Of a DNA stretch of 64,000 nucleotides, positions 10,212 through 60,589 are shown piece after piece. Source of the stretch: Spirosoma aerolatum (lineage in GTDB: Bacteria; Bacteroidota; Bacteroidia; Cytophagales; Spirosomataceae); contig NZ_CP020104.1 in the NCBI RefSeq assembly GCF_002056795.1, positions 3,669,001-3,733,000 of the forward strand, written 5' to 3'. The notes under the pieces are model-generated. The model saw only the letters and a list, made by a program, of their open reading frames with translations, was not told the DNA's origin and did no database searches. The position numbers and the translations under genes are program-made. Each line of letters starts with the position of its first letter. The stretch's first letter is position 1.

Positions 10212-10229
10212 CGCGGGTTTTCACCCGCG
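10212..10229 (-). repeat. Post-stop hairpin, GTAACGCGGGTG family, copy 1
   Basis: On the minus strand the perfect hairpin CGCGGGT-GAAA-ACCCGCG begins five bases after the stop codon of the oxidoreductase gene. The sequence around it, GTAACGCGGGTGAAAACCCGC, is nearly repeated at 59327-59347. There is no U-tract of the classic terminator type. Confidence 0.75.
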
Positions 10230-10234
10230 TTACA

Positions 10235-11602
10235 TTACAGCGTTGGCTCCCAGCCTTTTTCGTACTCGCGTTGCCAGAATTTCATCGCGTTTTTGTTGTT
10301 CAGAATATGGCCGTTGGTTGGGTCTATCGTCAGCGTATCGCCAGAGCGGAGGGCGATGTTGCCCAGTTGACACAGGAGTGTACTCTGGTGCCCTCCGACA
10401 ATACCCGATGCCAGTGGAGCGCCTGTTTTGATGGCGGCCACGAAATTTTGAAGGTGGGTAGCGTCCAGAGCCTGGGATGGGTTCATTTTGTTCCGTGGGT
10501 CGATGGGTAAATCGTTCTTTACATCCTTAATCAGTTTGTTGTCGAGGTCAAAGATTTTGTAGGCATTGCCACCGCCGTATTGGAGCGAGCCGGTTTCGCC
10601 ATAGAACGTAACCCCCACATCACTCCCTTCAACGGTTCGGCCATTGCAGCTTCGGCCTTCCCAGGTCATGGCCGTGTTGTTGTTGAATGTCAGGTTAATG
10701 ACTTGCGTATCAGGCGTTTCCCAGTCATCTTTATACCGATAGCGGCCACCCAGCGACGTCACTTTGTTGGGGTACTCTACATCCAGGCCCCAGCGCATCA
10801 GGTCGAGCATGTGGGTGCCGTTATTCAGGGCTTCGCCTGTGCCCCAATGCCAGAACCAGTGCCAGTTATAGTGAATAATATTGTCTTTGTAGGCGCGTCT
10901 TGGCGCAGGGCCCTGCCATAAGTCATAGTTCAGCCAGAGCGGTACGGGGGTCGATTTGCCGATGCCAATGGTGGCCCGGTTGTTGGTGTACCAGCCTTTG
11001 GCAAAATATGGCCGACCGATGGCTCCGTTTTTAATGTCCTCAATCGCCAGCTTTACATTAGGCCACGAACGGCGCTGGTTGCCCATCTGAATCACATTCT
11101 TATACTTAGCTGCTACGGCCACCAGCAGTTCGCCTTCGTGCGGGTTGTGGCTGCATGGCTTTTCGAGGTATACGTGTTTGCCTGCTTTCGAGGCCAAAAT
11201 AGCCGCTGGAGCGTGCCAGTGGTCGGGAGCGGCAATGACGAGAGCGTCCATGTCTTTGTCGTCAAGTGCCTTTCGGAAGTCGGGCTGATTTTTGGGCTTC
11301 GACTTCTGAATGCCGTCTACCGTGGCGATGCACTTCTCGGCCGCTCGCGTGTCGACATCGCAGATCGTGACTACTTCGCAGTTAGGCTGAAGGGCAAAAT
11401 TACTCGACAGAGCCAGGCCACGGCTGTTAACGCCCATAACGCCGACCTTTACCTTTTCGTTGGCACCCAGGATTCGCCCGTAACTTCTGGGGCTGAAACC
11501 GGGCAGAACGCCCCCAATCGACAATACTGCGGTGCTGATAAGCGTCTTTTTAACGAAATTCCGCCGGGAGTTTGCCGTTGGGTTATTGCTCGTGTTATTC
11601 AT
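10235..11602 (-). CDS. Tat-exported Gfo/Idh/MocA family oxidoreductase
   Basis: 455 residues. The start carries a twin-arginine signal (NSRRNFVKKT, then a hydrophobic stretch ending near residue 35), so the folded, cofactor-loaded protein is probably exported to the periplasm. A Rossmann domain begins near residue 51 (KVKVGVMGVNSRG), with the acidic CDVD strand end and the family EKP motif (YLEKPC, Lys148). The C-terminal domain has GTHMLDLMRW, the expected substrate-binding His and Asp. Family members oxidise or reduce sugars and inositols with NAD(P). Substrate is unknown. It is upstream of the GlcNAc genes on the same strand, separated by a short hairpin. Confidence 0.88.
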   Translation of the reverse strand: MNNTSNNPTANSRRNFVKKTLISTAVLSIGGVLPGFSPRSYGRILGANEKVKVGVMGVNSRGLALSSNFALQPNCEVVTICDVDTRAAEKCIATVDGIQKSKPKNQPDFRKALDDKDMDALVIAAPDHWHAPAAILASKAGKHVYLEKPCSHNPHEGELLVAVAAKYKNVIQMGNQRRSWPNVKLAIEDIKNGAIGRPYFAKGWYTNNRATIGIGKSTPVPLWLNYDLWQGPAPRRAYKDNIIHYNWHWFWHWGTGEALNNGTHMLDLMRWGLDVEYPNKVTSLGGRYRYKDDWETPDTQVINLTFNNNTAMTWEGRSCNGRTVEGSDVGVTFYGETGSLQYGGGNAYKIFDLDNKLIKDVKNDLPIDPRNKMNPSQALDATHLQNFVAAIKTGAPLASGIVGGHQSTLLCQLGNIALRSGDTLTIDPTNGHILNNKNAMKFWQREYEKGWEPTL

Positions 11603-11629
11603 AATACTGGTTTTAGGAATGATCAGTCG

Positions 11630-11977
11630 CTAGTTGACTTGAGGAGCCTAGCAGGTACAATAATCCGTTGTGTAAACTAGGCCTTTGAACACCAAACACG
11701 AACCACACCCCAGGCCCTCTTTAGGGAGCAACCATAAATTACAGTTGCCGAACTTCGATTCGGGCAGGGGAGACTGGTTTACATACCCCCGTTTTTTTCG
11801 TGTTTTCACATCGGCCTCATTGATACGCGAAAAGTCATTACAGGGGTCAATAACAGCTTTTTTGTCTTCTGAAGGCGTTTTGGATTGACACCTACTCAGT
11901 AGCAGCGAGAAACCCAAAGCCGCTGAACCCGAAATAATGGATTTATTAATAATTTGTTGTCGGGCGTAATGTGAGGG
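11630..11977 (-). pseudogene. Decayed high-potential iron-sulfur protein (HiPIP) gene
   Basis: The minus-strand frame from 11977 reads a signal-like N-terminus (ARQQIINKSIISGSAALGF, then LLLSRCQS), DPCNDFSRINEADV, RGYVNQSPLPES, then a HiPIP-like cluster region: NCNLWLLPKEGLGCGSC, FKGLVYTTDYCTC. HiPIPs are small exported [4Fe-4S] electron carriers with CxxC, about 14 residues, C, about 12-13 residues, C. Here the first Cys of CxxC is Phe (TTC, one base from TGC). The spacing of 14 and 12 residues to the other ligands is kept. The frame ends at TAG 11648-11650, where the family usually has Trp (TGG). Beyond it, APQVN and a second stop (11630-11632) follow in frame, like a normal HiPIP tail. No ATG or GTG opens the frame; only TTG at 11917 is available. 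HiPIP identity is from memory of the family pattern. Confidence 0.62.
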
Positions 11978-12073
11978 TTACTAGCTGAATTTATTCGTCT
12001 GGTCAATGTGTCGATGAATCGTGGGTTTCTCGATTTAGGCTTCCTTTAACTGCTTATTCCAATTGACCGTTGA

Positions 12074-13381: not shown

Positions 13382-13435
13382 AGTCGTTTTAGTAGTGGAG
13401 CTGGCGTTCAGAAGCCCTACCTTTCTGTATTTTCG

Positions 13436-13482
13436 GCCGTATCTGTGGAGTCGGATTCTTGGTCCGACTCCACAGATACGGC
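13436..13482 (-). terminator. Perfect 20-bp hairpin after the ceramidase-like gene
   Basis: Arms 13436-13455 and 13463-13482 (GCCGTATCTGTGGAGTCGGA and its exact complement) flank a 7-base loop and begin six bases past the stop codon. The transcript after the stem is GAAAAUAC rather than a U-run, so it is either a weak terminator or an RNA-processing or 3'-end-stabilising element. Confidence 0.7.
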
Positions 13483-13488
13483 TGGGAA

Positions 13489-14850
13489 TTACTTTAATTT
13501 GGGTACACCAACCTGGTCGGCCAATCGGTTAATTTCCTGGTAGATCAAAGCAGGGGCTTCGGGTGCCCAGGTGGCTGGTAACCCATAAACCATTTGCGAT
13601 GTAGCCCCTTCGTAACCACCTTCCTGCAAAATGGTGGTTGAGGGAATGTAGCCCATCACGTCGTTTGAATAGCCCATTACAAAAATGTGGGGGCCAAATC
13701 GTTTCTTGCAGTCGATCGTATACTGGACTACGAGTTCGCCACCAAAGCTTAAAATGGGTTGATTCCCCAATTGCCATACCTGTACCGGATAAGGATAGTG
13801 ACTGATAAAGGTTTTACCCTGCCTCTTTTCGGCCAGCATACGGGTTGCCCAGCGTTTAAGATAGCCTTCGCTTTCCTGGATGGTCTTCGTTAAGTCCGCT
13901 TCGGAGGGTGGAGCCGAAAGCGGTAGCTGAATTTCGGAGTATGCCGTTCGCAGCTGTGGTGTCAGGTTCTGCATGGGCTCATTGAGAACCCGTTCTACGG
14001 CTGCGGCCAGTTCCTGCCCATACTGACGGGCCAGCGGGATCGTCCTACGAGGGAGTGGGTTCTGGTCACCGGCCGCCCCCTGAAAAAATAGGGCCGTTAC
14101 ACCCGGATGTGTTTTTTCCAGTTCCAATTGCGCAAAGCCCGCGTAATCGCCCGACCATTGATACAGGTCCAGCACTGTAGGGTGACAAGCGTACCCAAAC
14201 ACAATGGCTTTGAGCTGTCCGCTGGCGTTGGCAATTTTAATGACCGGAACGGCATAATCGTTGGGGCCTTTCAGCTCCGTTTGTTCCAGCAGGGCCCCTT
14301 CTTTGTTGTTTCGTCGGTTCACCTGAAATCGTGTGACACCATTCTGGGCGGATAAGACAGCGGGTTCCAGCTTCTGGAATGCCTGCTCCACCAGCGTCAC
14401 GATCTGGGCTTCCAGCCATCGGGAATACCGATCGATTGTTTCCTGCTCCCTGGCGTCGAGGGGGTAAATGTCCTGGAGAGCGTTGTCCAGAACAGGGCCC
14501 GAATGGGTATGCGAACTGTTGAGAATGATCTGCGCTTTGGTTAGGTGGAACTGGCTGTTCAGTCGTTCGCGAATCCGGTCCGACATAACTTTCGGAAAGC
14601 CCAGCATATCGGTAGTCACCAGAACCGCCCGATGGCCTGTTTCATCTTCCAGCGCCAGGGCTTTGGCCCATAAATCGTGAAGGGTGCCATCGGCAGCGTG
14701 GGTACGAGAGGCATAACCTGCCTGCCACTGCGATTCTTTAGGGGTAATAAGCACGCTGGCAGCACCCGCTTTCCAGCCATCGGCCGAAGCTGTGTGCTGA
14801 AGGCATACCCCAAACCAGATTAGCCAGACAAACCCTGCTACGTACCTCAT
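13489..14850 (-). CDS. Neutral/alkaline ceramidase-like secreted hydrolase
   Basis: 453 residues starting with a Sec-type signal peptide (MRYVAGFVWLIWFGVCLQ, ending near TASA). Family marks of the neutral ceramidase N-terminal domain are GAASVLITPKE.QWQAGY.SR, the VTTDMLG strand, and NSSHTHSGPVLD with the zinc-type His residues; VFGYACHPTVLD and FFQGAAGDQNP follow. True ceramidases cleave the N-acyl bond of ceramide, but many bacterial proteins with this domain in sugar loci have no known substrate. The stop overlaps the next gene upstream in the classic ATGA fashion (14847-14850). It is shorter than full ceramidases (about 650-700 residues) and lacks their C-terminal Ig-like domain. Confidence 0.82.
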   Translation of the reverse strand: MRYVAGFVWLIWFGVCLQHTASADGWKAGAASVLITPKESQWQAGYASRTHAADGTLHDLWAKALALEDETGHRAVLVTTDMLGFPKVMSDRIRERLNSQFHLTKAQIILNSSHTHSGPVLDNALQDIYPLDAREQETIDRYSRWLEAQIVTLVEQAFQKLEPAVLSAQNGVTRFQVNRRNNKEGALLEQTELKGPNDYAVPVIKIANASGQLKAIVFGYACHPTVLDLYQWSGDYAGFAQLELEKTHPGVTALFFQGAAGDQNPLPRRTIPLARQYGQELAAAVERVLNEPMQNLTPQLRTAYSEIQLPLSAPPSEADLTKTIQESEGYLKRWATRMLAEKRQGKTFISHYPYPVQVWQLGNQPILSFGGELVVQYTIDCKKRFGPHIFVMGYSNDVMGYIPSTTILQEGGYEGATSQMVYGLPATWAPEAPALIYQEINRLADQVGVPKLK

Positions 14851-16262: not shown

Positions 16263-16280
16263 GGGTTTGGATGATTGCGG

Positions 16281-17499: not shown

Positions 17500-17521
17500 T
17501 TGGATTAGTCAGTGGACTAAG

Positions 17522-17742: not shown

Positions 17743-17774
17743 AGGAGGTTAGCTTTTAAATTTTTACAGCCTAC

Positions 17775-20343: not shown

Positions 20344-20431
20344 TAACACAGAGATACACGAAGAAGGCTGAGACACGCAGAGAATAGTAAAACGTTGTGT
20401 GTCTCAGCCTTCTTCGCGTATCTCTGTGTTA
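20344..20431. repeat. Long intergenic palindrome, 33-bp arms
   Basis: Arms 20344-20376 and 20399-20431 match at 32 of 33 positions (TAACACAGAGATACACGAAG... and its complement) around a 22-base loop. It lies 13 bases after the peptidase stop and ends 16 bases before the next ATG, without a U-run. Confidence 0.85.
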
Positions 20432-28272: not shown

Positions 28273-28310
28273 CGGGAATCGACGCTAAGCGTCGCCCGAT
28301 AGTTGCCCAC

Positions 28311-28364
28311 GTTTACAGGTTAGCCCACATGGTGGTCATCCTCCATATGGGCTGGCCTGTAAAC
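28311..28364. repeat. Imperfect palindrome after the small secreted protein gene
   Basis: Arms 28311-28335 and 28340-28364 match at about 21 of 25 positions (GTTTACAGGTTAGCCCACATGG and its complement). A smaller palindrome, CGACGCTAAGCGTCG, lies at 28280-28294, right after the stop. Either could end transcription. Confidence 0.6.
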
Positions 28365-28512
28365 ATGCACCGACTCGACGGACTGTTAAATTTTTCTTTT
28401 CGCTTTTTAAATAGAAACATGACCTGAACCTGCTTAGAGTACGGCATCAGGTTGCGAGCCTTTGGATTCCACCCGATTATCTGGGTGTTCTACTATCAAT
28501 TTCCCATCAATC

Positions 28513-28924: not shown

Positions 28925-28970
28925 GCATCCGTAACAATCTGTGCGAAATCGCACAGATTGTTACGGATGC
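28925..28970 (+). terminator. Perfect 22-bp terminator hairpin
   Basis: GCATCCGTAACAATCTGTGC plus GA pairs fully with its complement across a two-base loop, and TTTTT follows. It separates the TerB-like gene from the efflux operon. Position alone would also allow an enhancer role for the sigma-54-like promoter about 40 bases downstream. Confidence 0.85.
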
Positions 28971-29037: not shown

Positions 29038-30312
29038 ATGACAACACAGAAAATGGACAGAGAATTAGCCCCGGAAGTAGTGACCCGAAGCCGTAACAAA
29101 AGCCTGCTTGTCGGTGTAGTGGTGGTTGTGGGGCTGGCCATAGCCCTGACCTGGGCGCGTGATGCACTAAAGACCTCCGTCGAAGCAGAGAAAATACGAT
29201 TAGCTACGGCTGAGATCGGACCCGTTGAGAATACGCTCGATGCAACAGGTGAAGTGATTCCGGCCTTCGAACAGGTGATCACCAGCCCCATCCGGGCCAG
29301 CATCCGGCGTGTACTGCTTACACCCGGTACATCCGTAAAACCCGGTCAGCCCATCCTCGATCTTGACAAATCGCTGACGGAAATTGAACTGGAAAAAATA
29401 AAGGACCAACTCGAACTCAAACGGAACGGTATCGACCAGTTGCGGATGAAACTTACGAAAAGCCTGTACGATGCCGAGGTGAATGACCAGATCAAGCAAC
29501 TCAATATCAGCAAGCTAAGAGCCGAACTCGAAGGCATCCGCCGTTTGCAGAAGGTAGGCGGGAATACGGCAGAAGATGTTACCCGCTCCGAAAATGCCCT
29601 GCGTGTCGCTGAACTGGAAAAGAAGCAACTGGAGAATGATCTGAACTACAACCGGCAGTCGATGGGGGCAAGCCTGCGCGAAACGACGATACAGGCGCAG
29701 ATTGAAGAAAAAAATGTTAGGGAGCTTCAGCACAAATTAAAACAGGCCGACATTGTCGCCGACCGACCCGGTGTGCTGACCTGGGTAAACGAGAACATTG
29801 GTTCGGCTGTCAATGAAGGGGAAATGCTGGCGAAACTGGCCGATCTGGCCAGCTTTCGGGTCGAAGGTTCCTGCTCGGATGTGTACGCCGATCTGGTGAA
29901 AGTAGGGCTACCCGTCATCGTAAAAGTAAATGAGACATCGCTTCGGGGGCAGATTACACAGGTTAAACCCGCCGTTAAGAATGGCATTGTTCAGTTTGTG
30001 ATTCAGTTGGATGATAACCATCATACCTCGTTGAGGCCCAACATGAAAGCCGATGTGTTTGTGGTAACCAACCGTACCGCCAATGCCGTTCGGGTAGCGA
30101 ATGGACCCGCGTTTAAAGGAAAGCGGAAACAGTTTGTCTATGTGTTACCGAAAGGGGAGAAGGTGGCGCATCGACGAGAAGTGACCATCGGCCTCACCAA
30201 CTTCAATTTCGTAGAAATCAAGCAGGGACTTCAGCCGGGAGAACAGATCATTCTGACGGACCTGAGCGAGTATGAGCATCTGGAAGATATTACGATTGCC
30301 CCGAAACGTTAG
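29038..30312 (+). CDS. Periplasmic adaptor (HlyD/MacA type) of an ABC efflux system
   Basis: 424 residues from 29038; if the sigma-54-like start point is right, the ATG at 29053 gives 419. One N-terminal membrane anchor (LLVGVVVVVGLAIALTW), a lipoyl half (VIPAFEQVITSPIRASIRRVL, seen as TSPIRASIRRV and GTSVKPGQPIL), a long coiled coil (about 115-235) and beta-barrel parts (RPNMKADVFV, LQPGEQIILTD). It links an inner-membrane ABC exporter to a TolC channel. TolC, ATPase, two permeases and a two-component pair follow on the same strand. Confidence 0.88.
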   Translation: MTTQKMDRELAPEVVTRSRNKSLLVGVVVVVGLAIALTWARDALKTSVEAEKIRLATAEIGPVENTLDATGEVIPAFEQVITSPIRASIRRVLLTPGTSVKPGQPILDLDKSLTEIELEKIKDQLELKRNGIDQLRMKLTKSLYDAEVNDQIKQLNISKLRAELEGIRRLQKVGGNTAEDVTRSENALRVAELEKKQLENDLNYNRQSMGASLRETTIQAQIEEKNVRELQHKLKQADIVADRPGVLTWVNENIGSAVNEGEMLAKLADLASFRVEGSCSDVYADLVKVGLPVIVKVNETSLRGQITQVKPAVKNGIVQFVIQLDDNHHTSLRPNMKADVFVVTNRTANAVRVANGPAFKGKRKQFVYVLPKGEKVAHRREVTIGLTNFNFVEIKQGLQPGEQIILTDLSEYEHLEDITIAPKR

Positions 30313-30316
30313 CCTC

Positions 30317-31762
30317 ATGAACCGTCTCTACATCCTTCTTTTCGGCTTACTGGCAATGGTGGGGCAAACCTTCGGACAGGCGCAGGTGATGACGCTGAAC
30401 GAGGTGTTGCAACTGGCGCACGGGCAGTCGGTAGCGTCGAAACGGGCCGCTACGCAGCAGCGGACCAATGTCTGGTCGTATCGCTCGTTTCTGGCCCAGT
30501 TCAAACCCCAGCTTAGCCTGGACGGAACCTTGCCGAATTTCACACGCTCGTATGTTCAGGTAGTGCAGCCCGATGGGAATATTCGATTTGAACCTGTTTC
30601 GTACAACAACTCGACGCTGAATTTATCGCTTAGCCAGACGATTGCCCCTACGGGTGGGACTATTTTTATCCAGAAACAGATCCAGCGATTCGATAATTTT
30701 ATCCAGAACAATACCCTCTATAATGGTGTCCCGTTTGGTATTGGGCTGACCCAGCCACTATTTCAGTTCAATGTCATGCGTTGGGATCGTCGGATTCAGC
30801 CGTTGCTGTATGCCGAAGGGAATCAGCAGCTTATCGAAAATCTAGAGCAGGTTTCATTATCGGCCACGACCCTGTATTTTGATTTGCTGGTGGCTCAGGT
30901 CAATCTGCAAATAGCAGAAACGAACCGGGCCAACAACGATACCCTGTACCGAATTGCGCTGCATAAACTGGATCTGGGCCGGATTTCGCAGAACGACCTG
31001 TTGCAGTTGAAAATGAGTGTGCTCAGTGCCGAAAAAGACCTGGCTTCGGCTCAGCAGACGGCGGCAGTAGCGTCGCTAAAACTCAAAACGTTTATTGGGG
31101 CGCGTGATGATCGTCCATTCGAACTGGTTATACCAAGTCAACTGCCTGTACTGAATGTCGATGTGAAGCGGGCACTCGATGAAGCCACGGCCAACCGGTC
31201 GGCTGCCATTGCTTTCCGTCGACGGCAACTAGAAGCCGACCGTGACCTGGACAAGGCCCGCAAAAATAACGGCCTGAATGCCTTGTTAACGGCAGGATAT
31301 GGGTTGTCGAACCAGGGGCCAAATCTGGGCGATATTTATGTGAAACCCCAGAACCGCGAATACATTTCGTTGCAGTTTACCCTACCCATTATGACCTGGG
31401 GCCGGGCACAGGCGACGGTCGAAACCGCAAAAGCGAATCGTGAACTGACCCAGCAGACGGTGGAGCAGGATAAGCTGACGTTTGAACAGGAAATTTTTAC
31501 GCAGGTGACGCTCCTCCAGATGCTTCGGCAGCAGGTAACGCTCACGGCGCAGGCCGACCAGATTGGGCAGAACCGCTACCAGATTGCGCAGGATCGTTTT
31601 CGACTCAGTGATCTGAGTGTGACCGATTTAAGTATTGCCACGCAGGAAAAAGACCGCGCCCGTCGGGATGCCATTATCGCCCTGCGCGATTTCTGGCAGG
31701 CGCATTACACCCTGCGTTTATTGACCTTATACGATTTTGAAACAAACCAGAAAATAAACTAG
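30317..31762 (+). CDS. TolC-family outer membrane efflux protein
   Basis: 481 residues from the ATG at 30317, which opens a clear signal peptide (MNRLYILLFGLLAMVGQTFG); the frame reaches back to 30272 inside the adaptor gene and is rejected there. Two similar halves of long helices with outer-membrane beta strands are visible, e.g. LNEVLQLAHGQSVASKRA, NTLYNGVPFGIGLTQPLF, and GYGLSNQGPNLGDIY with YISLQFTLPI. It forms the exit duct for the adaptor and ABC exporter. Four bases separate it from the adaptor stop. Confidence 0.87.
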   Translation: MNRLYILLFGLLAMVGQTFGQAQVMTLNEVLQLAHGQSVASKRAATQQRTNVWSYRSFLAQFKPQLSLDGTLPNFTRSYVQVVQPDGNIRFEPVSYNNSTLNLSLSQTIAPTGGTIFIQKQIQRFDNFIQNNTLYNGVPFGIGLTQPLFQFNVMRWDRRIQPLLYAEGNQQLIENLEQVSLSATTLYFDLLVAQVNLQIAETNRANNDTLYRIALHKLDLGRISQNDLLQLKMSVLSAEKDLASAQQTAAVASLKLKTFIGARDDRPFELVIPSQLPVLNVDVKRALDEATANRSAAIAFRRRQLEADRDLDKARKNNGLNALLTAGYGLSNQGPNLGDIYVKPQNREYISLQFTLPIMTWGRAQATVETAKANRELTQQTVEQDKLTFEQEIFTQVTLLQMLRQQVTLTAQADQIGQNRYQIAQDRFRLSDLSVTDLSIATQEKDRARRDAIIALRDFWQAHYTLRLLTLYDFETNQKIN

Positions 31763-31770
31763 CATCGGTC

Positions 31771-31839
31771 AAAGGGGTAGGGGTATAGAGTGATTTAATT
31801 ACAACTCTTATCCCCATGCCCCCAGCACCATGCCCCTAG
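31771..31839. repeat. Imperfect palindrome between tolC-like and ATPase genes
   Basis: GGGGTAGGGGTATAGAGT pairs imperfectly with ACTCTTATCCCCATGCCCC. It starts just after the tolC-like stop and ends four bases before the ATPase start. The right arm also carries CAGCACCATGCCCC, reminiscent of the arm at 36657-36681. Confidence 0.5.
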
Positions 31840-31842
31840 CCA

Positions 31843-32505
31843 ATGATACACCTCCAAAACATCGAAAAAGTGTACCGCACCAGCACCATCGAGACGCTGG
31901 CACTGAACAACATCAACCTGAATATCCGAAAAGGCGAGTTTGTCTCCATCATGGGGCCGTCGGGTTGTGGAAAAAGTACGCTCCTGAACGTGATGGGCCT
32001 GCTGGATGAACCCTCAAATGGAACCGTCGAGATTGATGGACAGGCTGTTACGCAGTACCGTGATAAAGAACTGGCACAGCTTCGGAATCAGAAGATTGGC
32101 TTCATTTTTCAGAGCTTTCACCTGATCAACGATTTGTCGGTACTCGACAACGTAGAGATCCCACTGTTGTATCGTTCGGCCAACGGGCGCCCCCGTCAGG
32201 AATACGCAAAAGATGCTCTGATGAAGGTGGGCTTAAGCAACCGGATGAAGCATTTTCCCAAGCAATTGTCGGGTGGGCAGAAACAGCGTGTGGCCATTGC
32301 CCGTGCCATCGTCGGAAATCCTGATATCATTCTGGCCGATGAGCCAACGGGTAACCTCGACAGTGCGATGGGGAACGAAATCATGAATATTCTCCAGCAA
32401 CTCAACAGCGATGGAGCTACCATTGTGATGGTTACGCACGATGAACAAATGGCCAAACGCACTCATCGGCTGGTACGACTCTTCGACGGAACGCAAGTAC
32501 TGTAA
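31843..32505 (+). CDS. ABC transporter ATPase (MacB/LolD type)
   Basis: 220 residues, a single nucleotide-binding domain: Walker A GPSGCGKST, Q-loop FIFQSFHL, signature LSGGQKQRVAIARA, Walker B IILADEPTGNLD and the switch His in VMVTHDE. The pattern is of the MacB/LolD/FtsE group that powers mechanotransmission-type exporters. It works with the two permeases that follow and the adaptor and TolC before it. Substrate unknown (lipid, peptide or antibiotic are all possible). Confidence 0.94.
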   Translation: MIHLQNIEKVYRTSTIETLALNNINLNIRKGEFVSIMGPSGCGKSTLLNVMGLLDEPSNGTVEIDGQAVTQYRDKELAQLRNQKIGFIFQSFHLINDLSVLDNVEIPLLYRSANGRPRQEYAKDALMKVGLSNRMKHFPKQLSGGQKQRVAIARAIVGNPDIILADEPTGNLDSAMGNEIMNILQQLNSDGATIVMVTHDEQMAKRTHRLVRLFDGTQVL

Positions 32506-32608
32506 AGAGCGAAAGAGTGAATGAGTGAAAGAGCGCCAAGTAACGGTTCACAATTTTCCTCCTCACTCTGCCCTCCGCTCTTTCACTCATTCACTCTTTC
32601 GCTCTTTA
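32503..32608. repeat. Perfect 33-bp palindrome, GAGYGAAA family, copy 1
   Basis: Arms 32503-32535 and 32576-32608 are exact complements (33 of 33), built of GAGCGAAA/GAGTGAAT/GAGTGAAA units. The left arm starts at the TAA of the ATPase gene; the right arm ends three bases before the permease ATG. Confidence 0.92.
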
Positions 32609-32611
32609 ATC

Positions 32612-33859
32612 ATGCTAACAAACTACATAAAAATCGCCTGGAAGGTTTTGCTCCGGCATCCGTTTTATACCTTCATTACGCTCTTCGGTATCAGTCTGAC
32701 CCTGACGGTGCTGATGGTGCTGACTTCGTTTCTCGACCATATTTTCGGAAGCCATTACCCCGAAACGAAGCGGGATCGGTCGGCCTACATCATGCAGGTG
32801 GTACAACGCGATTCGGCTAGTTCGGGGCGGAGTACGGGGCCTATGAGCTTCAAATTCCTGACTAACTTTGTTAAAACGCTGAAAACACCCGAACGAGTAA
32901 CCATCTGTTCGTTCGTCAATAGCTCTAATGCGTACGTGGGCTCGCAGAAAATCAAGCTCAATACCAAATTCACGGATGCTGATTTCTGGCGCATTATGGA
33001 CTTCGATTTTCTCGAAGGGAAACCTTACAATGAGCAGAATATTGCCAATGGTGAGTATGTAGTCGTGATCAACGATGATCTGAAAAAGCAGTATTTTGAC
33101 AATTCGGAGGAGTCGGTCATTGGAAAAACAATCGATATTGAAAGCATTAATTACAAAATCATCGGTGTTGTGAAAGGTAGCCCGGTGACACGTCCGTTTT
33201 CTTATGCCGATGTGTATTTTCCGTACACGGCTCCCAAGAGTAATTACCAGCAGAGCGGCATGCGGGGAGGCTTTGTCAGTGTCATATTGGCCAAACAGAA
33301 ATCGGATATTCCGGCTATCCAGGAAGAGTTTCAGAGTCGGGTCAGTACGATTCCCCTGCCAGGGGTCGAAAATGGGTGGAAGTATCATACTGTAGAAATT
33401 AAAGCGGAACCATATGCTGAGAACTTCATCGGAACGATACTGGATGCAGGCCCTGGACTGAAGACTGTTTTTTTCGGCATTCTCTTCTTTGTTCTGTTTA
33501 TGCTGCTGGGCTTACCGGCCATCAACCTGGTCAATGTGAACGTTAGCCGCATCATGGAACGGGGTTCTGAAATTGGCATCCGTAAGGCCTTCGGGGCACC
33601 CGTTCGCACACTGGTCTGGCAGTTTATCATCGAGAATATTTTCATTACGTTCATAGGCGGAGCCATTGCCCTCTTGCTGACTAGCATCGTGATTTATTTC
33701 ATCAATAGCAGCGGCTGGATTGCCTACGCCGATCTGACTATTAACCTGAGCGTCTTTCTAATCAGTATTCTGGTTTGTCTGATTTTCGGTTTCCTGTCGG
33801 GCGTACTCCCCGCCCTGCGCATGTCGAAACTTACCATTGCCGAAGCACTAAAATCTTAA
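32612..33859 (+). CDS. ABC transporter permease (MacB/FtsX family) 1
   Basis: 415 residues from the ATG at 32612; the frame back to 32525 is made of palindrome sequence and is rejected. Four membrane segments in the FtsX layout: one near residues 22-42, a large periplasmic domain (about 45-270), then three near 285-305, 338-360 and 375-400. NVNVSRIMERGSEIGIRKAFGA is the coupling-helix region typical of MacB-like permeases. It should pair with permease 2 under the shared ATPase. Confidence 0.88.
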   Translation: MLTNYIKIAWKVLLRHPFYTFITLFGISLTLTVLMVLTSFLDHIFGSHYPETKRDRSAYIMQVVQRDSASSGRSTGPMSFKFLTNFVKTLKTPERVTICSFVNSSNAYVGSQKIKLNTKFTDADFWRIMDFDFLEGKPYNEQNIANGEYVVVINDDLKKQYFDNSEESVIGKTIDIESINYKIIGVVKGSPVTRPFSYADVYFPYTAPKSNYQQSGMRGGFVSVILAKQKSDIPAIQEEFQSRVSTIPLPGVENGWKYHTVEIKAEPYAENFIGTILDAGPGLKTVFFGILFFVLFMLLGLPAINLVNVNVSRIMERGSEIGIRKAFGAPVRTLVWQFIIENIFITFIGGAIALLLTSIVIYFINSSGWIAYADLTINLSVFLISILVCLIFGFLSGVLPALRMSKLTIAEALKS

Positions 33860-33954
33860 AGAGCGAAAGAGTGAATGAGTGAAAGAGCGAACTGTTCGCT
33901 ATCCATTATTTTTCACCCATCCGCTCTTTCGCTCATTCACTCTTTCACCCTTTA
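33857..33954. repeat. 33-bp palindrome, GAGYGAAA family, copy 2
   Basis: Left arm 33857-33889 is identical to the left arm of copy 1, and again its first three bases are the TAA stop. Right arm 33922-33954 pairs at 30 of 33 positions and ends two bases before the next ATG. Confidence 0.9.
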
Positions 33955-33956
33955 TC

Positions 33957-35114
33957 ATGATGCTACAACATCTCTTTAAACTCATCTGGAATAAGAAGAA
34001 GACCCATATGCTGCTGATTGTCGAAATCTGGGCTTCGTTTATGGTGTTATTTGGTCTGGCCACGCTGATCGTTGTGAACGTTGGCAATTACCGCGAACCG
34101 CTGGGCTTTTCGTACGAACGGGTTTGGGCAATTGGCCTGAATACGAATCAGGATACGACCGAGCTGGCTGATAAAGTCCAGCGGATTGCCCAGCGATTAA
34201 ACGCTTACCCGGAAGTGGAATCGGTTTCGCGCATGAGCAGTAATTTTCCATTTTCAGCCAACCAAATGAATAATGGTATCGAATACAACAAGCGTAATGT
34301 ACTGGCTGATCATTACGTGACCGATGAAAATTTTGCCAAAACACTCGAAATGCCCGTTGTAGCGGGTAAGTGGTATCGGCATACAGATAGCGTGGGTAAA
34401 TATTGGCCCATCGTTATCAATCAGAAGGCAAAAGAAGGGCTTTTTGGCGACGAAAATGCGCTGGGTAAAGTGGTTGGCGAACGGCTTAAGGTGGTGGGGG
34501 TCGTTGATAATTTCAAAGCCAAAGGCGAATTTATGTCAAATAAACCCGCCTACTTTGAATTAGTAAACGCGAAGGATTCCTGGAACAACACCATGCTGAT
34601 TAGGGTGAAGCCGGGAACCGATGCCGTATTCGAAGCTAAAGTGGTAAAGGATATTGCTACGATGGTGAAAGGCTGGAGCGTGGAGGTCGACTATCTGACC
34701 GATTCCCGAAAGAATCAACATAACCTGGTGCTGGTGCCTGTTATCATTGCGTCTATTATATCCGGGTTTTTGCTGATCAATGTAGCGTTGGGATTATTCG
34801 GTGTCCTGAACCTGAGCATCGCCAAACGACGGGGCGAAATTGGCTTACGTCGGGCCATTGGGGCTACGGGCAGTGGGATTGCGTCGCAGTTCATCGGTGA
34901 AATCTGGGTATTGGCTACCTTTGCTATGCTCATTGGTTTGCTCTTTGCGGCTCAGTTTCCGATTTTGAATGTGTTCGATTTACAGGCTGGAGTATATATT
35001 TCGGCCATCCTGATCGCCATCGCCGTCATTTACGGTATTGTAACAATCTGCGCCTTATTTCCCAGCCGTCAGGCAGCCTTAATTCAACCCGCTGTGGCCT
35101 TGCATGAAGAGTAG
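33957..35114 (+). CDS. ABC transporter permease (MacB/FtsX family) 2
   Basis: 385 residues from the ATG at 33957 (a second ATG follows at once). One N-terminal membrane segment, a periplasmic domain of about 230 residues and three C-terminal segments; the cytoplasmic loop LSIAKRRGEIGLRRAIGAT is the MacB-type coupling motif. The sequence differs from permease 1, so the exporter is probably a heterodimer. The upstream palindrome is excluded from the reading frame. Confidence 0.86.
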   Translation: MMLQHLFKLIWNKKKTHMLLIVEIWASFMVLFGLATLIVVNVGNYREPLGFSYERVWAIGLNTNQDTTELADKVQRIAQRLNAYPEVESVSRMSSNFPFSANQMNNGIEYNKRNVLADHYVTDENFAKTLEMPVVAGKWYRHTDSVGKYWPIVINQKAKEGLFGDENALGKVVGERLKVVGVVDNFKAKGEFMSNKPAYFELVNAKDSWNNTMLIRVKPGTDAVFEAKVVKDIATMVKGWSVEVDYLTDSRKNQHNLVLVPVIIASIISGFLLINVALGLFGVLNLSIAKRRGEIGLRRAIGATGSGIASQFIGEIWVLATFAMLIGLLFAAQFPILNVFDLQAGVYISAILIAIAVIYGIVTICALFPSRQAALIQPAVALHEE

Positions 35115-35228
35115 AGACGCAATACCTTGCGTCTCTTTTGCATCAGCAACGGGGTCGTCGCCCTTAAATCTTTAAAAAACGGCTGCAAACGCCATACGGT
35201 CGGGAGACGCCAGGTATGTCGTCTCTAC
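35111..35228. repeat. Nested palindromes, GAGACGC family
   Basis: The left unit 35111-35137 contains its own hairpin (AGAGACGCAA-TACC-TTGCGTCTCT then TTTT, a plausible terminator). The right unit 35202-35228 is its inverted copy (22 of 27). The left unit covers the permease stop, and the right unit ends 14 bases before the regulator ATG. Confidence 0.78.
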
Positions 35229-35242
35229 AGATTTTTACCATC

Positions 35243-36616: not shown

Positions 36617-36619
36617 CGT

Positions 36620-36681
36620 GGTGCGTGGTGCTGGGAGCGAGGTGACTTCCTCCCTGCACCTCGCTCCCAGCACCACGCACC
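36620..36681. repeat. Perfect 25-bp palindrome between regulator and kinase genes
   Basis: Arms 36620-36644 and 36657-36681 are exact complements (GGTGCGTGGTGCTGGGAGCG plus AGGTG) with a 12-base loop. The element starts four bases after the stop and ends seven bases before the kinase ATG. Confidence 0.92.
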
Positions 36682-36688
36682 CTGCCCT

Positions 36689-47589: not shown

Positions 47590-48642
47590 ATGCCCGATTT
47601 CAAACCGTCGCTAATCTTATATACTGCCGATGCCCTTAACAGTCGGGGCGAAGCTGTGCTGGCAAAATTTCCCGAAGCTGAGGCACTGGAAGTAAAGCAG
47701 CATAATCGGTTACCTGATCTGGGCCTGAATCATTTCAAGGTTAAATCGAATGTACTGGTCTTGGGGCGGCTGAAAACCCAGGACATTAAATGGAGCGGTC
47801 GAAGTGCTGATTACATTGCCCCGAGTTTGGCAAACGGCTGTTTTGGCGGGTGTACCTACTGCTATGTAGATCGTCATAAAACGGTGAATCCGATTACGCT
47901 TTTCACCAATGTTGAGGAAAACATAGCCACGGTCAATGAGCAGATTAGTACGCTGCCCTGGCCTAAAGTGCCTAACCAGACTGATGACCAGTTTTATACC
48001 TACGATATTGGCTGTAATTCGGATATTTCGGTTGACTACGGTTTAACGGATGGCATTCGGCAGGTATTTGATTTTTATCGGACGCACCCTCGCGCCAAGG
48101 CAACGTTTGCGACGAAGTATGTGAATCGGGATATGCTAAATTTCGATCCTGAACGAAAAGTGAGGATACGGTTCAGTTTAATGCCAGCTCACGTGAGTAA
48201 ACTGGTCGATGTACGTACCGATAGTATAGAGAAACGACTGGCGGCTATCAATGATTTTTATGATGCCGGTTATGAAGTACACGTCAATTTTTCGCCGGTT
48301 ATCGTCTATACCGGACCCGATGGCGACCGAAAAGCCTGGCGAAACGATTACCGCGATTTATTCCGTCAGTTAGATGCTGCCCTACGGCCAGAAGTTCGCC
48401 AACAGCTTAAATGCGAGGTGATTTTTCTAACCCATAACCAGTGGCAGCATCAAGCTAATCTGGCTATCAATCCCAAAGCTGAAGAACTGCTGTGGGTGCC
48501 TGAATTACAGGAGAGTAAGGTAAGCCAGTTTGGCGGCTGGAATATTCGATACCAGCATCAGTTAAAGCGTAAAATGATCGAGATTTTTGAGCGGCTCGTT
48601 CAGGAAGAAATCCCTTGGTGCCAGATCCGGTATATATTCTGA
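47590..48642 (+). CDS. Radical SAM protein of the spore-photoproduct-lyase family
   Basis: 350 residues. The [4Fe-4S]/SAM motif is CFGGCTYC (CX3CX2C) near residue 84, embedded in LANGCFGGCTYCYVDRHK. TYDIGCNSDISVD and FATKYVNRDMLN match SplB-type proteins. True SplB repairs spore DNA lesions, but this organism type does not sporulate, so DNA repair or another radical chemistry is possible. A long palindrome covers its stop codon and that of the convergent DoxX gene. Confidence 0.85.
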   Translation: MPDFKPSLILYTADALNSRGEAVLAKFPEAEALEVKQHNRLPDLGLNHFKVKSNVLVLGRLKTQDIKWSGRSADYIAPSLANGCFGGCTYCYVDRHKTVNPITLFTNVEENIATVNEQISTLPWPKVPNQTDDQFYTYDIGCNSDISVDYGLTDGIRQVFDFYRTHPRAKATFATKYVNRDMLNFDPERKVRIRFSLMPAHVSKLVDVRTDSIEKRLAAINDFYDAGYEVHVNFSPVIVYTGPDGDRKAWRNDYRDLFRQLDAALRPEVRQQLKCEVIFLTHNQWQHQANLAINPKAEELLWVPELQESKVSQFGGWNIRYQHQLKRKMIEIFERLVQEEIPWCQIRYIF

Positions 48643-48749
48643 ACCGGGATTTATGTGATTTCACTGACTAACTTTGATTAGGCCTTCTTCGAAGGCTTTT
48701 AGAACAATCAAATTCGGTCAGTAAAATCACATAAATCCCGGTTCAGAAT
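48636..48749. repeat. 114-bp palindrome between convergent genes
   Basis: Arms 48636-48668 and 48717-48749 match at 32 of 33 positions (ATTCTGAACCGGGATTTATG...). The loop adds a weaker stem and a GCCTTC/GAAGGC tip. The left arm contains the TGA of the radical SAM gene; the last base of the right arm is the first base of the TGA complement of the opposite gene. It can act as a bidirectional terminator. Confidence 0.9.
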
Positions 48750-50960: not shown

Positions 50961-51067
50961 GAATCTAAACGCGGCCGATGAATAGTCAACGAAATATTGA
51001 TTAAGTGTTTATAAAAAAGGCTCACCACTAAACTGGCGAGCCTTTTTTAATTTGTATAGGTTCTACT

Positions 51068-57626: not shown

Positions 57627-57636
57627 GGTGTTTTTG

Positions 57637-57709
57637 TGATTCGGCTGGGATTCGAACCCAGGACCCATACATTAAAAGTGTATTGCTCTACCAGCTGAGC
57701 TACCGAATC
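57637..57709 (-). tRNA. tRNA-Lys (anticodon TTT)
   Basis: 73 bases. Acceptor arms GATTCGG and CCGAATC pair fully with discriminator A. D-arm GCTCAGCTGGTAGAGC, anticodon loop CTTTTAA and T-arm CTGGGTTCGAATCCCAG are standard. CCA is not encoded. Confidence 0.97.
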
Positions 57710-57750
57710 GATTCCCGTTGAAGAAACAGGGGTGTCGTCGTTTGGGATTG

Positions 57751-57758
57751 CAAAAGTA
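57751..57758 (-). promoter_or_regulatory. -7 element of tRNA-Lys
   Basis: On the minus strand TACTTTTG is an exact TAnnTTTG match, about 42 bases before the mature tRNA. Confidence 0.6.
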
Positions 57759-57789
57759 TGACTTTGTTTTTCTAAACGCAAGCGAAACG

Positions 57790-58659: not shown

Positions 58660-58664
58660 GAAAA

Positions 58665-58752
58665 TGTCATTCCTTGTCATTGATAGTTATTCTTTGTTAT
58701 TGACTGTCAATCTCGTTTGTACGACAAAGGGCCAGTAATGACAGCGAATGAC
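58665..58752. repeat. Short inverted repeat in the folP/DUF1599 divergent gap
   Basis: GTCATTCCTTGTCATT (58666-58681) pairs with AATGACAGCGAATGAC (58737-58752) at 14 of 16 positions. Related GTTATT...GTCAAT words lie between them. It ends 11 bases before the ATG at 58764. Confidence 0.5.
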
Positions 58753-58763
58753 TATTACTACTT

Positions 58764-59315
58764 ATGTCCACTACGGAAATCGAATATCGGCAGGTTATTC
58801 AACGCTGCCAAGACCTATTCCTGAAAAAAAATAAAGACTATGGAACTGCCTGGCGAATCTTGCGGCTTTCCAGTATTACCGATCAGATTTATATTAAGGC
58901 TCAACGAATTCGCACCTTACAGGAAACCGGTGTGAGTCGTGTGGGTGAGGGTATAGAGCCCGAATTCATCGGTATCATCAATTACTGCGTTATGGCCCTG
59001 ATTCAGTTGAAGTTAGCTGGTGATAAGCGTACAGATATACCTGCTGATGAACTTGAAATGCTTTACACCGAACAGATTGGCCGGGTTATTGATCTGCTTT
59101 TTGCCAAAAATCATGATTACGGCGAAGCCTGGCGCGACATGCGCGTGAGTTCCATGACCGATATTATCCTGATGAAATTGCTCCGAACCAAGCAAATCGA
59201 GGATAATCAGGGTAACACGATCGTTTCTGAAGGTGTTGAAGCCAATTATATGGATATGATCAACTACGCCGTTTTTTGTCTGATTAAACTAAGTAATCCG
59301 GGTGGAAACCCATAG
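58764..59315 (+). CDS. DUF1599 protein (tandem nucleotide-modification-associated domains)
   Basis: 183 residues made of two similar halves: FLKKNKDYGTAWRILR...SSITDQIYIKAQRI and LFAKNHDYGEAWRDMR...SSMTDIILMKLLR. The family is widespread in Bacteroidota, normally between folP and a DoxX-type gene, as here. Function unknown. The last six codons (NPGGNP) and the stop lie in the left arm of a palindrome or next to it. Confidence 0.9.
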   Translation: MSTTEIEYRQVIQRCQDLFLKKNKDYGTAWRILRLSSITDQIYIKAQRIRTLQETGVSRVGEGIEPEFIGIINYCVMALIQLKLAGDKRTDIPADELEMLYTEQIGRVIDLLFAKNHDYGEAWRDMRVSSMTDIILMKLLRTKQIEDNQGNTIVSEGVEANYMDMINYAVFCLIKLSNPGGNP

Positions 59316-59347
59316 TAAAACGAATAGCGGGTTTCCACCCGCGTTAC
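59293..59347. repeat. Palindrome of the GTAACGCGGGTG family, copy 2
   Basis: Arms 59293-59312 and 59328-59347 match at 17 of 20 positions. The left arm encodes the C-terminal residues of the DUF1599 protein and ends just before its stop; the right arm ends four bases before the next ATG. The right arm, read on the minus strand, repeats the sequence after the oxidoreductase stop at 10212-10234. Confidence 0.75.
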
Positions 59348-59351
59348 GTGT

Positions 59352-60497
59352 ATGAATATAGCAACGACCCAGCCTAAAGTGAAAACCGGTACCCCACCGA
59401 TGTTGATTGCCGCCCGCATTGCCCGGATTCTGGTCGGAATCGTTTTTATTTTTTCGGGCTTAATTAAGTTAAACGACCCGGTCGGTACGCAGATCAAGTT
59501 CGAAGAATATTTCGAAGTTTTTGCCCAGGATGTGCCGTTTCTGCACGATTTCTTTATGGGTTTAGTGCCATTTACCCTGGTTATGTCGGTATTATTCTGT
59601 GCTGCCGAGGTAATTTTGGGGGTTGCCCTACTGGCTTCCTATAAGCCTAAGGTAACGGTTTGGCTGCTGTTTTTCCTGATCATTTTTTTTACGTTCCTGA
59701 CGTTTTATTCGGCCTATTTTAATCGGGTAACCGACTGCGGCTGCTTTGGGGATGCCATTAAACTCAAACCCTGGACTTCATTCGGGAAAGATGTCGTTCT
59801 GACCGTACTGATTCTGTTCATTATGGGGCACCGGAACCGGTTGCGTTCCAGAAATACGGGCTGGTTGGTTGCGCTAACAATCGTATTTACGCTAGGGCTG
59901 GGTATGTATGCGGTTCAATTCCTGCCTCCCATCGATATGCTGCCGTATGCTGTTGGCAAAAGTATTCCGGATCAGATGAAACCATCGGAGCCATTGCGGT
60001 ATAAATACTTGATGGAGAAAAACGGTGACGTGACCGAATTTGACAAATATCCGACCGACCCGAGCTACAAATTCAAGGAGATGGTACTGGTCAATGAAAA
60101 GGCAAAACCGAAAATTACGGATTACCGCGTCTGGAATGATGAAAGTGATTTCACGCAGCAAACCTTTGAAGGGGAAAAACTTTTCATCATCATCAAGAAT
60201 ACAAAAGACATTGATGCCGGTAGCCTGCCCGCTATTCGGGCATTGGTTGAAGGATTAAAGGGATCGGCTGTGTCGCCATTTATTCTGACATCGACCAGCG
60301 ACGATGAGATTAAAGCATTTCGGAAAGAGTTTCAGTTAGAGAACGTACCTTATTATAAAGCCGATGCGACCGTGTTGAAAACCATCATGCGGTCTAATCC
60401 GGGTACATGGCTCCTGAAAAATGGTGTTGTCCGGGGTAAATGGCACTACAATTCAACGCCCGATGCGGCTGAAGTGAAACAACTTGTGATTGAGTGA
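59352..60497 (+). CDS. BT_3928-type DoxX/MauE-like membrane protein
   Basis: 381 residues. The N-terminal half has four to five membrane segments in the DoxX/MauE layout (IARILVGIVFIFSGLIKL, the VILGVALLASY segment, LFFLIIFFTFLTFYS) with a CGCFGDA motif (Cys pair). The C-terminal half (from about 190) is a soluble thioredoxin-like domain (LFIIIKNTKDIDAGSLPAI, NVPYYKADATVLK). This combination is found beside DUF1599 genes across Bacteroidota. A redox or thiol role in the membrane is likely by fold, not proven. Confidence 0.85.
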   Translation: MNIATTQPKVKTGTPPMLIAARIARILVGIVFIFSGLIKLNDPVGTQIKFEEYFEVFAQDVPFLHDFFMGLVPFTLVMSVLFCAAEVILGVALLASYKPKVTVWLLFFLIIFFTFLTFYSAYFNRVTDCGCFGDAIKLKPWTSFGKDVVLTVLILFIMGHRNRLRSRNTGWLVALTIVFTLGLGMYAVQFLPPIDMLPYAVGKSIPDQMKPSEPLRYKYLMEKNGDVTEFDKYPTDPSYKFKEMVLVNEKAKPKITDYRVWNDESDFTQQTFEGEKLFIIIKNTKDIDAGSLPAIRALVEGLKGSAVSPFILTSTSDDEIKAFRKEFQLENVPYYKADATVLKTIMRSNPGTWLLKNGVVRGKWHYNSTPDAAEVKQLVIE

Positions 60498-60502
60498 AAA
60501 TT

Positions 60503-60589
60503 AATGAGTGAAAGAGTGAAGGAGCGAAAGAGTGAAAAGCTGACGCAAGCAAGTTTCACCCTTTCGCTCTTTCACTCTTTCACTCTTTA
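60503..60589. repeat. Palindrome of the GAGYGAAA family, copy 3
   Basis: The left arm (60503-60537) and right arm (60554-60589) are GAGTGAAA/GAGCGAAA tracts matching at about 31 of 34 positions. The element begins six bases after the stop and ends seven bases before the aroK ATG. Confidence 0.85.

What the first reader, a model, noticed from the sequence alone, without database searches (positions are those of the whole stretch)
10212..60589. Gene junctions are filled by long palindromes that begin at the stop codon
At least ten spaces hold palindromes with arms of 7-33 bp (13436-13482, 20344-20431, 32503-32608, 33857-33954, 35111-35228, 36620-36681, 48636-48749, 59293-59347, 60503-60589, 10212-10229). 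Several are perfect or nearly so. They start at, or within a few to about 13 bases of, the stop codon and most end 2-16 bases before the next start. Some sit inside what should be operons, so a plain terminator role does not fit. Sequences differ between junctions while the geometry is kept, which suggests selection or an active process for making or spreading them. They could uncouple translation, guide RNase III processing, set expression ratios, or be mobile REP-like elements needing a transposase in trans.
Basis: partly seen in the sequence, partly recalled or inferred. Interest (0 to 1): 0.75.

Follow-up and report, generated by a model that had tools for sequence, protein, structure and literature searches.

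The report
Fast-changing hairpins at gene seams
In this bacterium (nearest named relatives: Spirosoma) many gaps between neighbouring genes are filled by long DNA palindromes, which are often kept in place between sister species while their letters are inverted, re-edited or replaced by unrelated palindromes.

Summary
The palindromes are real and genome-wide. In 864 kb of this genome, inverted repeats (arms of at least 14 bp) sit in 84 of 339 co-directional and 38 of 75 convergent gene gaps (gaps of at least 40 bp) but in 10 of 101 divergent ones; shuffled gaps give 0-1. They crowd the stop codon, not the next start, and few have a terminator T-tract. The surprise comes from a sister species about 92% identical in DNA. 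Of 214 orthologous seams, 41 are palindromic in both, 19 in one, 154 in neither. Yet 7 of 39 shared palindromic seams hold unrelated sequence, against 1 of 87 ordinary seams. Five of 33 shared loops are inverted, four clearly, and arm changes are often compensated. Many word families occupy the seams. Best reading: a mixed class of REP/MITE-like hairpin elements, tolerated at 3' ends, kept palindromic by template switching between arms, and repeatedly overwritten. No reverse transcriptase match was found in this genome, and no Y1 transposase match in two relatives that carry a main family. What writes them is unknown; RNA effects are inferred. The turnover contrast is significant only in the closest pair.

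The parts
10212..10229 (.). short hairpin (7-bp arms, 4-nt loop) 5 bp after the stop of the minus-strand gene 10235-11602
   Evidence: read directly; too short for the repeat finder
13429..13489 (.). palindrome with 20-bp perfect inner arms (13436-13482), 6 bp after the stop of the minus-strand gene ending at 13489; no relative found in the DNA held
   Evidence: RNA fold z -8.1
20344..20431 (.). palindrome with CACAGAG-type words, 13 bp after a stop and 16 bp before a start; an AATGGATAATG-type palindrome stands in its place in the 92% identical sister species
32503..32608 (.). perfect 33-bp arms of GAGTGAAA/GAGCGAAA octads, from inside the stop codon (TAA) to 3 bp before ATG; ABC ATPase / MacB-FtsX permease seam
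   Evidence: RNA fold -57.7 kcal/mol
33857..33954 (.). 33-bp arms whose 5' arm is letter-for-letter that of 32503-32535; permease / permease seam
   Evidence: RNA fold -45.9 kcal/mol
35111..35228 (.). GTAGAGACGC-family palindrome with a 68-nt loop; its TAG is the stop codon of the permease gene
36620..36681 (.). perfect 25-bp arms (GGTGCGTGGTGC words) in a seam that is a 4-bp ATGA overlap in four of the twelve relatives read
   Evidence: RNA fold -61.8 kcal/mol
48636..48749 (.). 44-bp arms between convergent genes; TTCTGAACCGGGATTT family with five similar places elsewhere in the genome, two of which pass the inverted-repeat cut
59293..59347 (.). 19-bp arms (GGGTGGAAACCC words) beginning about 22 bases inside the upstream ORF and ending 4 bp before the next ATG
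60497..60594 (.). GAGTGAAA-octad palindrome with the recurring apex GCTGACGC; in the sister species the arms are GAGGAGCGAGG words while the apex is GCTGGCGCAAGC
   Evidence: RNA fold -58.7 kcal/mol
28925..28970 (+). contrast: terminator-like perfect 22-bp hairpin followed by T-rich DNA, its arms unchanged in relative G029
51012..51049 (.). contrast: terminator-like hairpin (A-rich / T-rich ends) between convergent genes

Best explanation
The palindromes are a mixed class of short (42-118 bp over the inverted repeat, median 76), non-coding hairpin elements of many unrelated word families that settle in the seam just behind a stop codon. Step 1 (shown as presence/absence; direction inferred): an element enters, or is lost from, a seam that otherwise often has almost no spacer. 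Step 2 (inferred from distribution): purifying selection removes insertions in coding regions and promoters, which leaves 3' ends; some words carry a stop and supply the stop codon. Step 3 (shown as signatures, mechanism inferred): polymerase template switching between the arms re-edits each element, which copies changes to the other arm and flips the loop. Step 4 (pattern shown in one species pair, mechanism unknown): occupied seams are overwritten by other families faster than point mutation changes ordinary spacers, by element exchange, gene conversion between dispersed copies, or loss and re-entry. Step 5 (inferred only): once transcribed they form very stable hairpins directly after the upstream cistron, which may protect its 3' end and separate it from the next gene; this would explain why a hairpin is kept while its letters are not.
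For: Excess and placement. Same seam, different palindrome in relatives: in five seams of a conserved efflux/ABC/two-component block, 32 of 81 seam readings over up to 18 relatives are palindromic, with many word families; 20 of the 49 non-palindromic readings are gaps under 20 bp or overlaps. Sister species G032: 214 seams, both 41, one 19, neither 154; 7 of 39 against 1 of 87 unrelated, Fisher p=0.0011. Gain/loss: gaps of 0 versus 99 bp and 199 versus 43 bp with alignable flanks, and 30 versus 109 bp with diverged flanks. Loop inversion in the same pair: of 33 elements with loops of at least 8 nt in both, 18 direct, 5 inverted (4 clear), 1 ambiguous, 9 unrelated. Arms: of 345 compared arm pairs (13 elements, own-G032), 14 compensated double changes plus 3 other doubles, against 3.9 doubles expected if independent. 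Families: 32 of 80 elements with arms of at least 20 bp match another place (E up to 0.001) in the 13.7% of the genome sampled, against 5 of 160 non-palindromic control pieces; at E up to 0.1 it is 44 of 80 against 32 of 160. RNA folds: z -8 to -11.5 for six seams.
Against: No donor, enzyme or target-site duplication was found. Single changes that break a pair (32) outnumber compensated doubles (14) in the closest pair, and over all three pairs it is 78 against 26, so decay is common. At larger divergence the turnover contrast vanishes: own-G029 6 of 11 palindromic against 10 of 28 ordinary seams unrelated; G033-G024 3 of 9 against 2 of 9. Outside the closest pair only 1 of 20 loops was called inverted (weak), 4 direct, 15 unrelated. 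Four of the seven unrelated seams are convergent, where terminators are expected, and one of these (48642) is arguably a strongly edited member of the same family. 27 of 80 elements matched nothing in 2.3 Mb of own and related DNA. No expression data exist here.
Confidence: 0.55

Rival explanations
1. They are intrinsic transcription terminators, possibly bidirectional and of an unusual length.
For: Enrichment at 3' ends and in convergent gaps (38 of 75); IRs just after stop codons are a general bacterial pattern that a census attributes to rho-independent termination (PMC13155455, passages seen). Two window hairpins (28925, 51012) do look like terminators.
Against: Only 14 of 87 co-directional repeats (7 of 53 with arms of at least 20 bp) have a T-rich tail; several lie in a compact conserved gene block; a terminator-like hairpin in the window keeps its letters in G029 while seam palindromes change.
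Confidence: 0.15
2. They are REP/REPIN elements moved by RAYT (Y1) transposases.
For: Dispersed extragenic palindromes; this genome has 5 Y1_Tnp matches; one family starts with GTAG, and GTAG REPs often supply the TAG stop (PMC3733652, passage), as at 35111.
Against: Of 80 elements with arms of at least 20 bp, 4 have GTAG and none CGTC within the first 8 nt of the 5' arm, and the median span is 76 bp rather than 20-40 bp; many unrelated families against five Y1 matches; G001 and G003 have no Y1_Tnp match but carry the GAGTGAA family; the one Y1 locus of this genome that I read (L002) has no GAGTGAA-type palindrome.
Confidence: 0.12
3. Purely mutational: slippage and template switching create and perfect palindromes locally from whatever spacer is present, without any element moving.
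For: Loop inversion, compensated arms, near-repeats of 7-9 bp within arms, elements without relatives in the DNA held, an apex kept while the arms change at 60497.
Against: Word families recur in the genome and in a high-GC genome of another family of the order; members of the TTCTGAACCGGG family resemble each other in the loop too (two of five fetched copies); a 0-bp against a 99-bp gap.
Confidence: 0.13
4. Retro-copying or diversity-generating reverse transcription.
For: Family copies at many places.
Against: No PF00078 (RVT_1) match in this genome or in six others of the eleven tested; four had one.
Confidence: 0.03

Closest known systems
REP / GTAG- and CGTC-tagged palindromic repeats (PMC3733652; passages seen, abstract start)
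   Same: extragenic palindromes in many copies, close to or overlapping coding ends; GTAG termini can provide the stop codon
   Different: median 76 bp rather than 20-40 bp, many unrelated word families, mostly no tag, seam kept while the family changes, no Y1 match in some carriers
Small mobile repeats and MITE-like elements of bacteria (PMC2229807; abstract start only)
   Same: short non-coding, intergenic, with presence/absence between relatives
   Different: no terminal repeat or target duplication established; the whole element is one hairpin; arms of different families share an apex word
Template switching at inverted repeats: arm homogenisation and spacer inversion (PMC8604942, yeast; passages)
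   Same: compensated arm changes and inverted loops between sister species
   Different: here in bacterial intergenic elements, with clearly inverted loops of about 12-42 nt, and together with replacement by other families
Rho-independent terminators downstream of stop codons (PMC13155455; passages)
   Same: inverted repeats after the stop
   Different: long arms and loops, few T-tracts, often co-directional compact seams, fast sequence change
Over-represented inverted repeats in prokaryotic intergenic DNA (PMC4060949; passages)
   Same: general excess of intergenic inverted repeats
   Different: the pattern-table lines seen use arms of 8-12 nt; the passages seen report no seam-specific turnover, and Spirosoma is not named in the text

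Membership tests
REP/REPIN mobilised by RAYT | GTAG or CGTC tag at one end | tested here: not met
   4 of 80 elements (arms of at least 20 bp) have GTAG and 0 of 80 CGTC in the first 8 nt of the 5' arm; in the window the family at 35111 has GTAG
REP/REPIN mobilised by RAYT | Y1/RAYT gene in the carrier genome | tested here: inconclusive
   5 matches in G000, none in G001 and G003, which carry GAGTGAA elements
REP/REPIN mobilised by RAYT | extragenic, many copies | tested here: met
   139 of 159 repeats intergenic; AGAGTGAAWGAGTGAA 69 matches in the genome (some overlapping), reversed control 0
Intrinsic terminator | GC-rich stem followed by a T-tract | tested here: not met
   7 of 53 co-directional repeats with arms of at least 20 bp have at least 5 T in the next 8
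MITE | clean insertion with target-site duplication | tested here: inconclusive
   presence/absence in G032, but no duplication could be assigned
MITE | terminal repeats shared with an autonomous transposon | not tested
   only L002 (a Y1 locus) was inspected
Inverted repeats under template switching | arm homogenisation | tested here: met
   17 double changes (14 compensated) against 3.9 expected, own-G032, 13 elements; uncompensated single changes are commoner (32)
Inverted repeats under template switching | spacer inversion | tested here: met
   5 of 33 elements own-G032 called inverted, 4 clear; 1 of 20 in the two other pairs
Retroelement / DGR | reverse transcriptase in the genome | tested here: not met
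   no PF00078 match in G000; 7 of 11 genomes without, 4 with
mRNA 3'-end protecting hairpin | altered decay or processing of the upstream cistron | not testable with these tools
   no RNA data; only folds

The most novel reading that the evidence does not exclude
An unidentified process, independent of reverse transcriptase and not requiring a Y1 transposase, writes and overwrites palindromes at gene seams: a seam once occupied stays a hairpin slot whose content is swapped between many word families that share only geometry and sometimes an apex word (GCTGACGC), so that structure is inherited and sequence is not.
Probability: 0.25. Interest if true: 0.85.

Novelty: new variant of a known kind. 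Interest (0 to 1): 0.6.

Why it matters
It is a natural case in which a hairpin at a defined place appears to be kept while its letters are replaced, between species that differ by only about 8% in DNA. If selection keeps the hairpin, it shows how gene seams are insulated in bacteria that rarely use Shine-Dalgarno sequences (recalled, not tested here). If mutation makes it, it is an unusually fast editing process in a bacterial chromosome. Either way it would confuse comparisons of spacers, small-RNA searches and terminator predictions in these bacteria.

Tried and rejected
Rfam at gathering cut-offs: only two tRNAs in the window. Plasmid collection: no match for the CACAGAG element, one match for an octad element, in a Spirosoma sp. 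plasmid. SbcCD loss as the cause of long palindromes: SbcD (TIGR00619) is missing above cut-off in G000, G001, G003 and G024 but present in G032, G033, G010 and G207, which also carry palindromes or their words, so its loss is not required; SbcC was not searched. Reverse transcriptase: no match in this genome. Purine-rich 5' arms (61 above and 20 below one half, of 87 co-directional repeats) looked like an orientation effect but are a property of the words, since an inverted repeat reads alike on both strands. The phylum-wide word search shows patchiness only: GAGTGAATGAGTGAA in 6 of 296 genomes, 26 matches in G000, 13 in G010, 48 in G207, one each in three others, none in G113 of the same genus as G207. 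The turnover test is significant in one pair and not in two more divergent pairs. Gene starts were called by my own script and some are wrong (for example 35216 instead of 35243; and the seam b4 5123, where the own genome looked empty only because of a start called inside its palindrome), so start distances are rough. A first family count used a database with two overlapping stretches and twenty stretches picked for their palindromes, and its added relatives may include orthologous copies; the recount without all of these is. Papers: passages only of PMC13155455, PMC3733652, PMC8604942 and PMC4060949; search listings for the rest. The listings shown held no paper describing these seam elements in Spirosoma or its order (aimed at this); subscription journals and preprints are mostly not in the library.
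Full report
Where it lies. The window is 64 kb of a single-contig 7.96-Mb genome. The nearest named relatives by an ABC ATPase are Spirosoma and Larkinella (that these belong to Cytophagales, Bacteroidota, is recalled). The genus set holds 36 genomes including this one; the closest, G032, is 92% identical over 3.7 kb and G029 83%.

The observation. Nine of the ten palindromes were returned by the repeat finder and the tenth was read directly. Corrections are in the observation check. The genes of the densest block (29038-37969) are an HlyD-type adaptor, an outer-membrane efflux protein, an ABC ATPase, two MacB/FtsX permeases, a sigma-54 response regulator and a histidine kinase, with called palindromes in four of the six seams.

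Genome-wide test. With my own gene caller (47 genes in the window, 91% coding), 864 kb gave 756 genes and 139 intergenic inverted repeats of arm at least 14 bp; 20 more were coding or at edges. Gaps of at least 40 bp holding one: 84/339 co-directional, 38/75 convergent, 10/101 divergent; with arms of at least 20 bp 53/339, 21/75 and 6/101; shuffled gaps 0-1. Starts cluster at stops (48 of 87 within 15 bp; random mean 33.7, maximum 46) but ends do not cluster at starts (27 of 87 within 16 bp; random mean 31.3). In co-directional gaps of 40-150 bp with arms of at least 16 bp (n=39) the element covers a median 75% of the gap, with medians of 5 bp from the stop and 16 bp from the start.

Words and families. 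Arms are built of short near-repeats of several families: GAGTGAAA octads, AATGGATAATG, GGATTTACAGGATT, GTCATTCCGACGNAGG, TGATTGAATGA, GTAGAGACGC, TTCTGAACCGGGATTT, GTATGATGTA and others. AGAGTGAAWGAGTGAA has 69 matches in the genome (some overlapping) and its reversed control 0. In fifteen fetched octad elements, loops are individual while arms share words; of five fetched places similar to the TTCTGAACCGGG element, two pass the inverted-repeat cut, and one of them keeps much of the window element's loop. Of 80 elements with arms of at least 20 bp, 32 match another place at E up to 0.001 in 1.09 Mb of own DNA, against 5 of 160 non-palindromic control pieces (44 against 32 at E up to 0.1). The share rises as more of the genome is searched, so it is a lower bound; 27 of 80 matched nothing in 2.3 Mb of own and related DNA. 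GCTGACGC heads the list of enriched apex 8-mers (13 of 326 elements against 0.42 expected) and is shared by several unrelated arm families; 10 of its 12 intergenic occurrences in the 864-kb sample lie in an apex.

Same seam, other palindrome. Across up to 18 relatives, five seams of the block were palindromic in 32 of 81 readings (BC 5/18, CD 9/18, DE 7/17, EF 8/16, FG 3/12; looser cut of 12 bp and 80%). At the ATPase/permease seam alone, different relatives show GAGTGAA octads, GGAGGAGAGGGAAG, GTACCCGACAGCA, TTGAATGATAGAATG, TGATTGAGCGAATG and ACACGGATTTAACAGATCG words. Of the 49 non-palindromic readings 20 are gaps under 20 bp or overlaps; 26 are spacers of 51-165 bp and three are longer.

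The close pair. Four blocks gave 214 orthologous seams with G032 (median protein identity 96.4%). Presence is strongly shared (41 both, 8 and 11 in one, 154 neither). Using the 95% level of non-orthologous seam pairs as the limit, 7 of 39 shared palindromic seams (up to 300 bp) are unrelated, against 1 of 87 ordinary seams of 30-300 bp (Fisher p=0.0011). Three are co-directional (20330, b2 66355, 60497) and four convergent (48642, 75190, b4 323, b3 60639); in 48642 both versions begin ACC-GGATTT, so it may be heavy editing rather than exchange. Two further seams counted as 'one only' by my cut also hold different palindromic words in the two species (31762, b4 22853). Clear presence/absence: b3 39835 and b4 8731; b2 69837 also, but with diverged flanks. 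Another apparent case (b4 5123) is a gene-start error, and several other 'one only' seams are threshold effects or start errors on reading. At 60497 the apex GCTGACGCAAGC / GCTGGCGCAAGC is kept while the arms differ.

Editing signatures. In the first block, 13 shared elements gave 345 arm pairs: 14 compensated doubles, 3 other doubles, 32 single changes that break a pair, 7 that restore one, 284 same and paired, 5 unpaired in both; doubles expected if independent, 3.9. The other pairs gave 9 compensated and 6 other doubles against 30 breaks (own-G029) and 3 and 1 against 16 (G033-G024). Over all four blocks 33 shared own-G032 elements had loops of at least 8 nt: 18 in the same direction, 5 inverted (four clear: b2 15313, b3 35817, b3 39221, b3 71421), 1 ambiguous, 9 unrelated; in the other two pairs 4 direct, 1 weakly inverted, 15 unrelated of 20. 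Arm homogenisation plus spacer inversion is what template switching between inverted repeats leaves in yeast (PMC8604942, passages).

Against. In two more divergent pairs the unrelated share does not differ between palindromic and ordinary seams (own-G029 6/11 against 10/28; G033-G024 3/9 against 2/9). That is expected once ordinary spacers have also diverged, but it leaves the turnover claim resting on one pair. Decay by single changes is common.

Spread. Inverted repeats (arm 18 bp, 90%) per 100 kb in the loci: Larkinella 26.6 (22 in 83 kb), Fibrella 24.2 (5 in 21 kb), Xanthocytophaga 19.4 (4 in 21 kb), Spirosoma 13.6 (18 in 132 kb), Dyadobacter 3.5 (11 in 318 kb), Mucilaginibacter 2.1 (4 in 188 kb), Pedobacter 0.9 (3 in 321 kb); these loci all surround one gene, so they are not random samples, and single-locus genera are weak. 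In other genomes: G207 (64% GC, another family of the order; three of six stretches were chosen around word hits) 10.8 with GTAGAGACGC and GTCATTCCGA members, its congener G113 7.2 with mostly short-loop terminator-like repeats, G231 0 in 80 kb, G007 6.7 in 60 kb. GAGTGAATGAGTGAA was found in 6 of 296 genomes of the phylum.

Machinery. No PF00078 match in G000. Y1 transposases: 5 matches in G000, none in G001 or G003, both of which have matches to the octad palindrome. SbcD is absent above cut-off in G000 but present in other carriers.

Function. Six window seams fold as RNA at -46 to -66 kcal/mol, 8 to 11.5 standard deviations below shuffles. What this does to mRNA decay or to translation of the next gene is not tested. 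The most economical view is that hairpins are at least harmless, and perhaps useful, directly after a stop codon; the shared slots favour usefulness but do not prove it.

Verdict. Real, non-random, and mostly not plain terminators; closest in kind to REP/MITE-like intergenic palindromes, but multi-family, seam-bound and edited or overwritten within a few percent of divergence. A new variant of a known kind, with a bolder reading (a palindrome-writing process of unknown nature) left open.

Noticed in passing
window 32506-33956; G032 C42: The two seams 32505-32612 and 33859-33957 are identical to G032 over 106 and 97 bp although the two species are about 92% identical, while the permease between them is only 84.8% identical in protein: a mosaic that suggests recent exchange.
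   Followed up: no
G000, G001, G003, G024 (whole genomes): SbcD (TIGR00619) is missing above cut-off in four of eight genomes of the genus tested, while the other four have it: patchy loss of a hairpin nuclease subunit.
   Followed up: partly
L002 (G000:C1:4651919-4655278): Two Y1_Tnp matches lie about 1.6 kb apart, with one 19-bp perfect inverted repeat upstream.
   Followed up: no
window 28308-28367: An imperfect 28-bp palindrome in a 240-bp co-directional gap where G032 has a version with three restored pairs and two compensated changes.
   Followed up: partly
NZ_CP087141.1 (Spirosoma sp. KNUC1025 plasmid) 75694-75794: An octad-type element also sits on a 350-kb plasmid, with features named DMT family transporter and ROK family protein under the match.
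   Followed up: no
G207 against G113 (one genus, another family of the order): 48 matches of GAGTGAATGAGTGAA in one species and none in a congener.
   Followed up: partly
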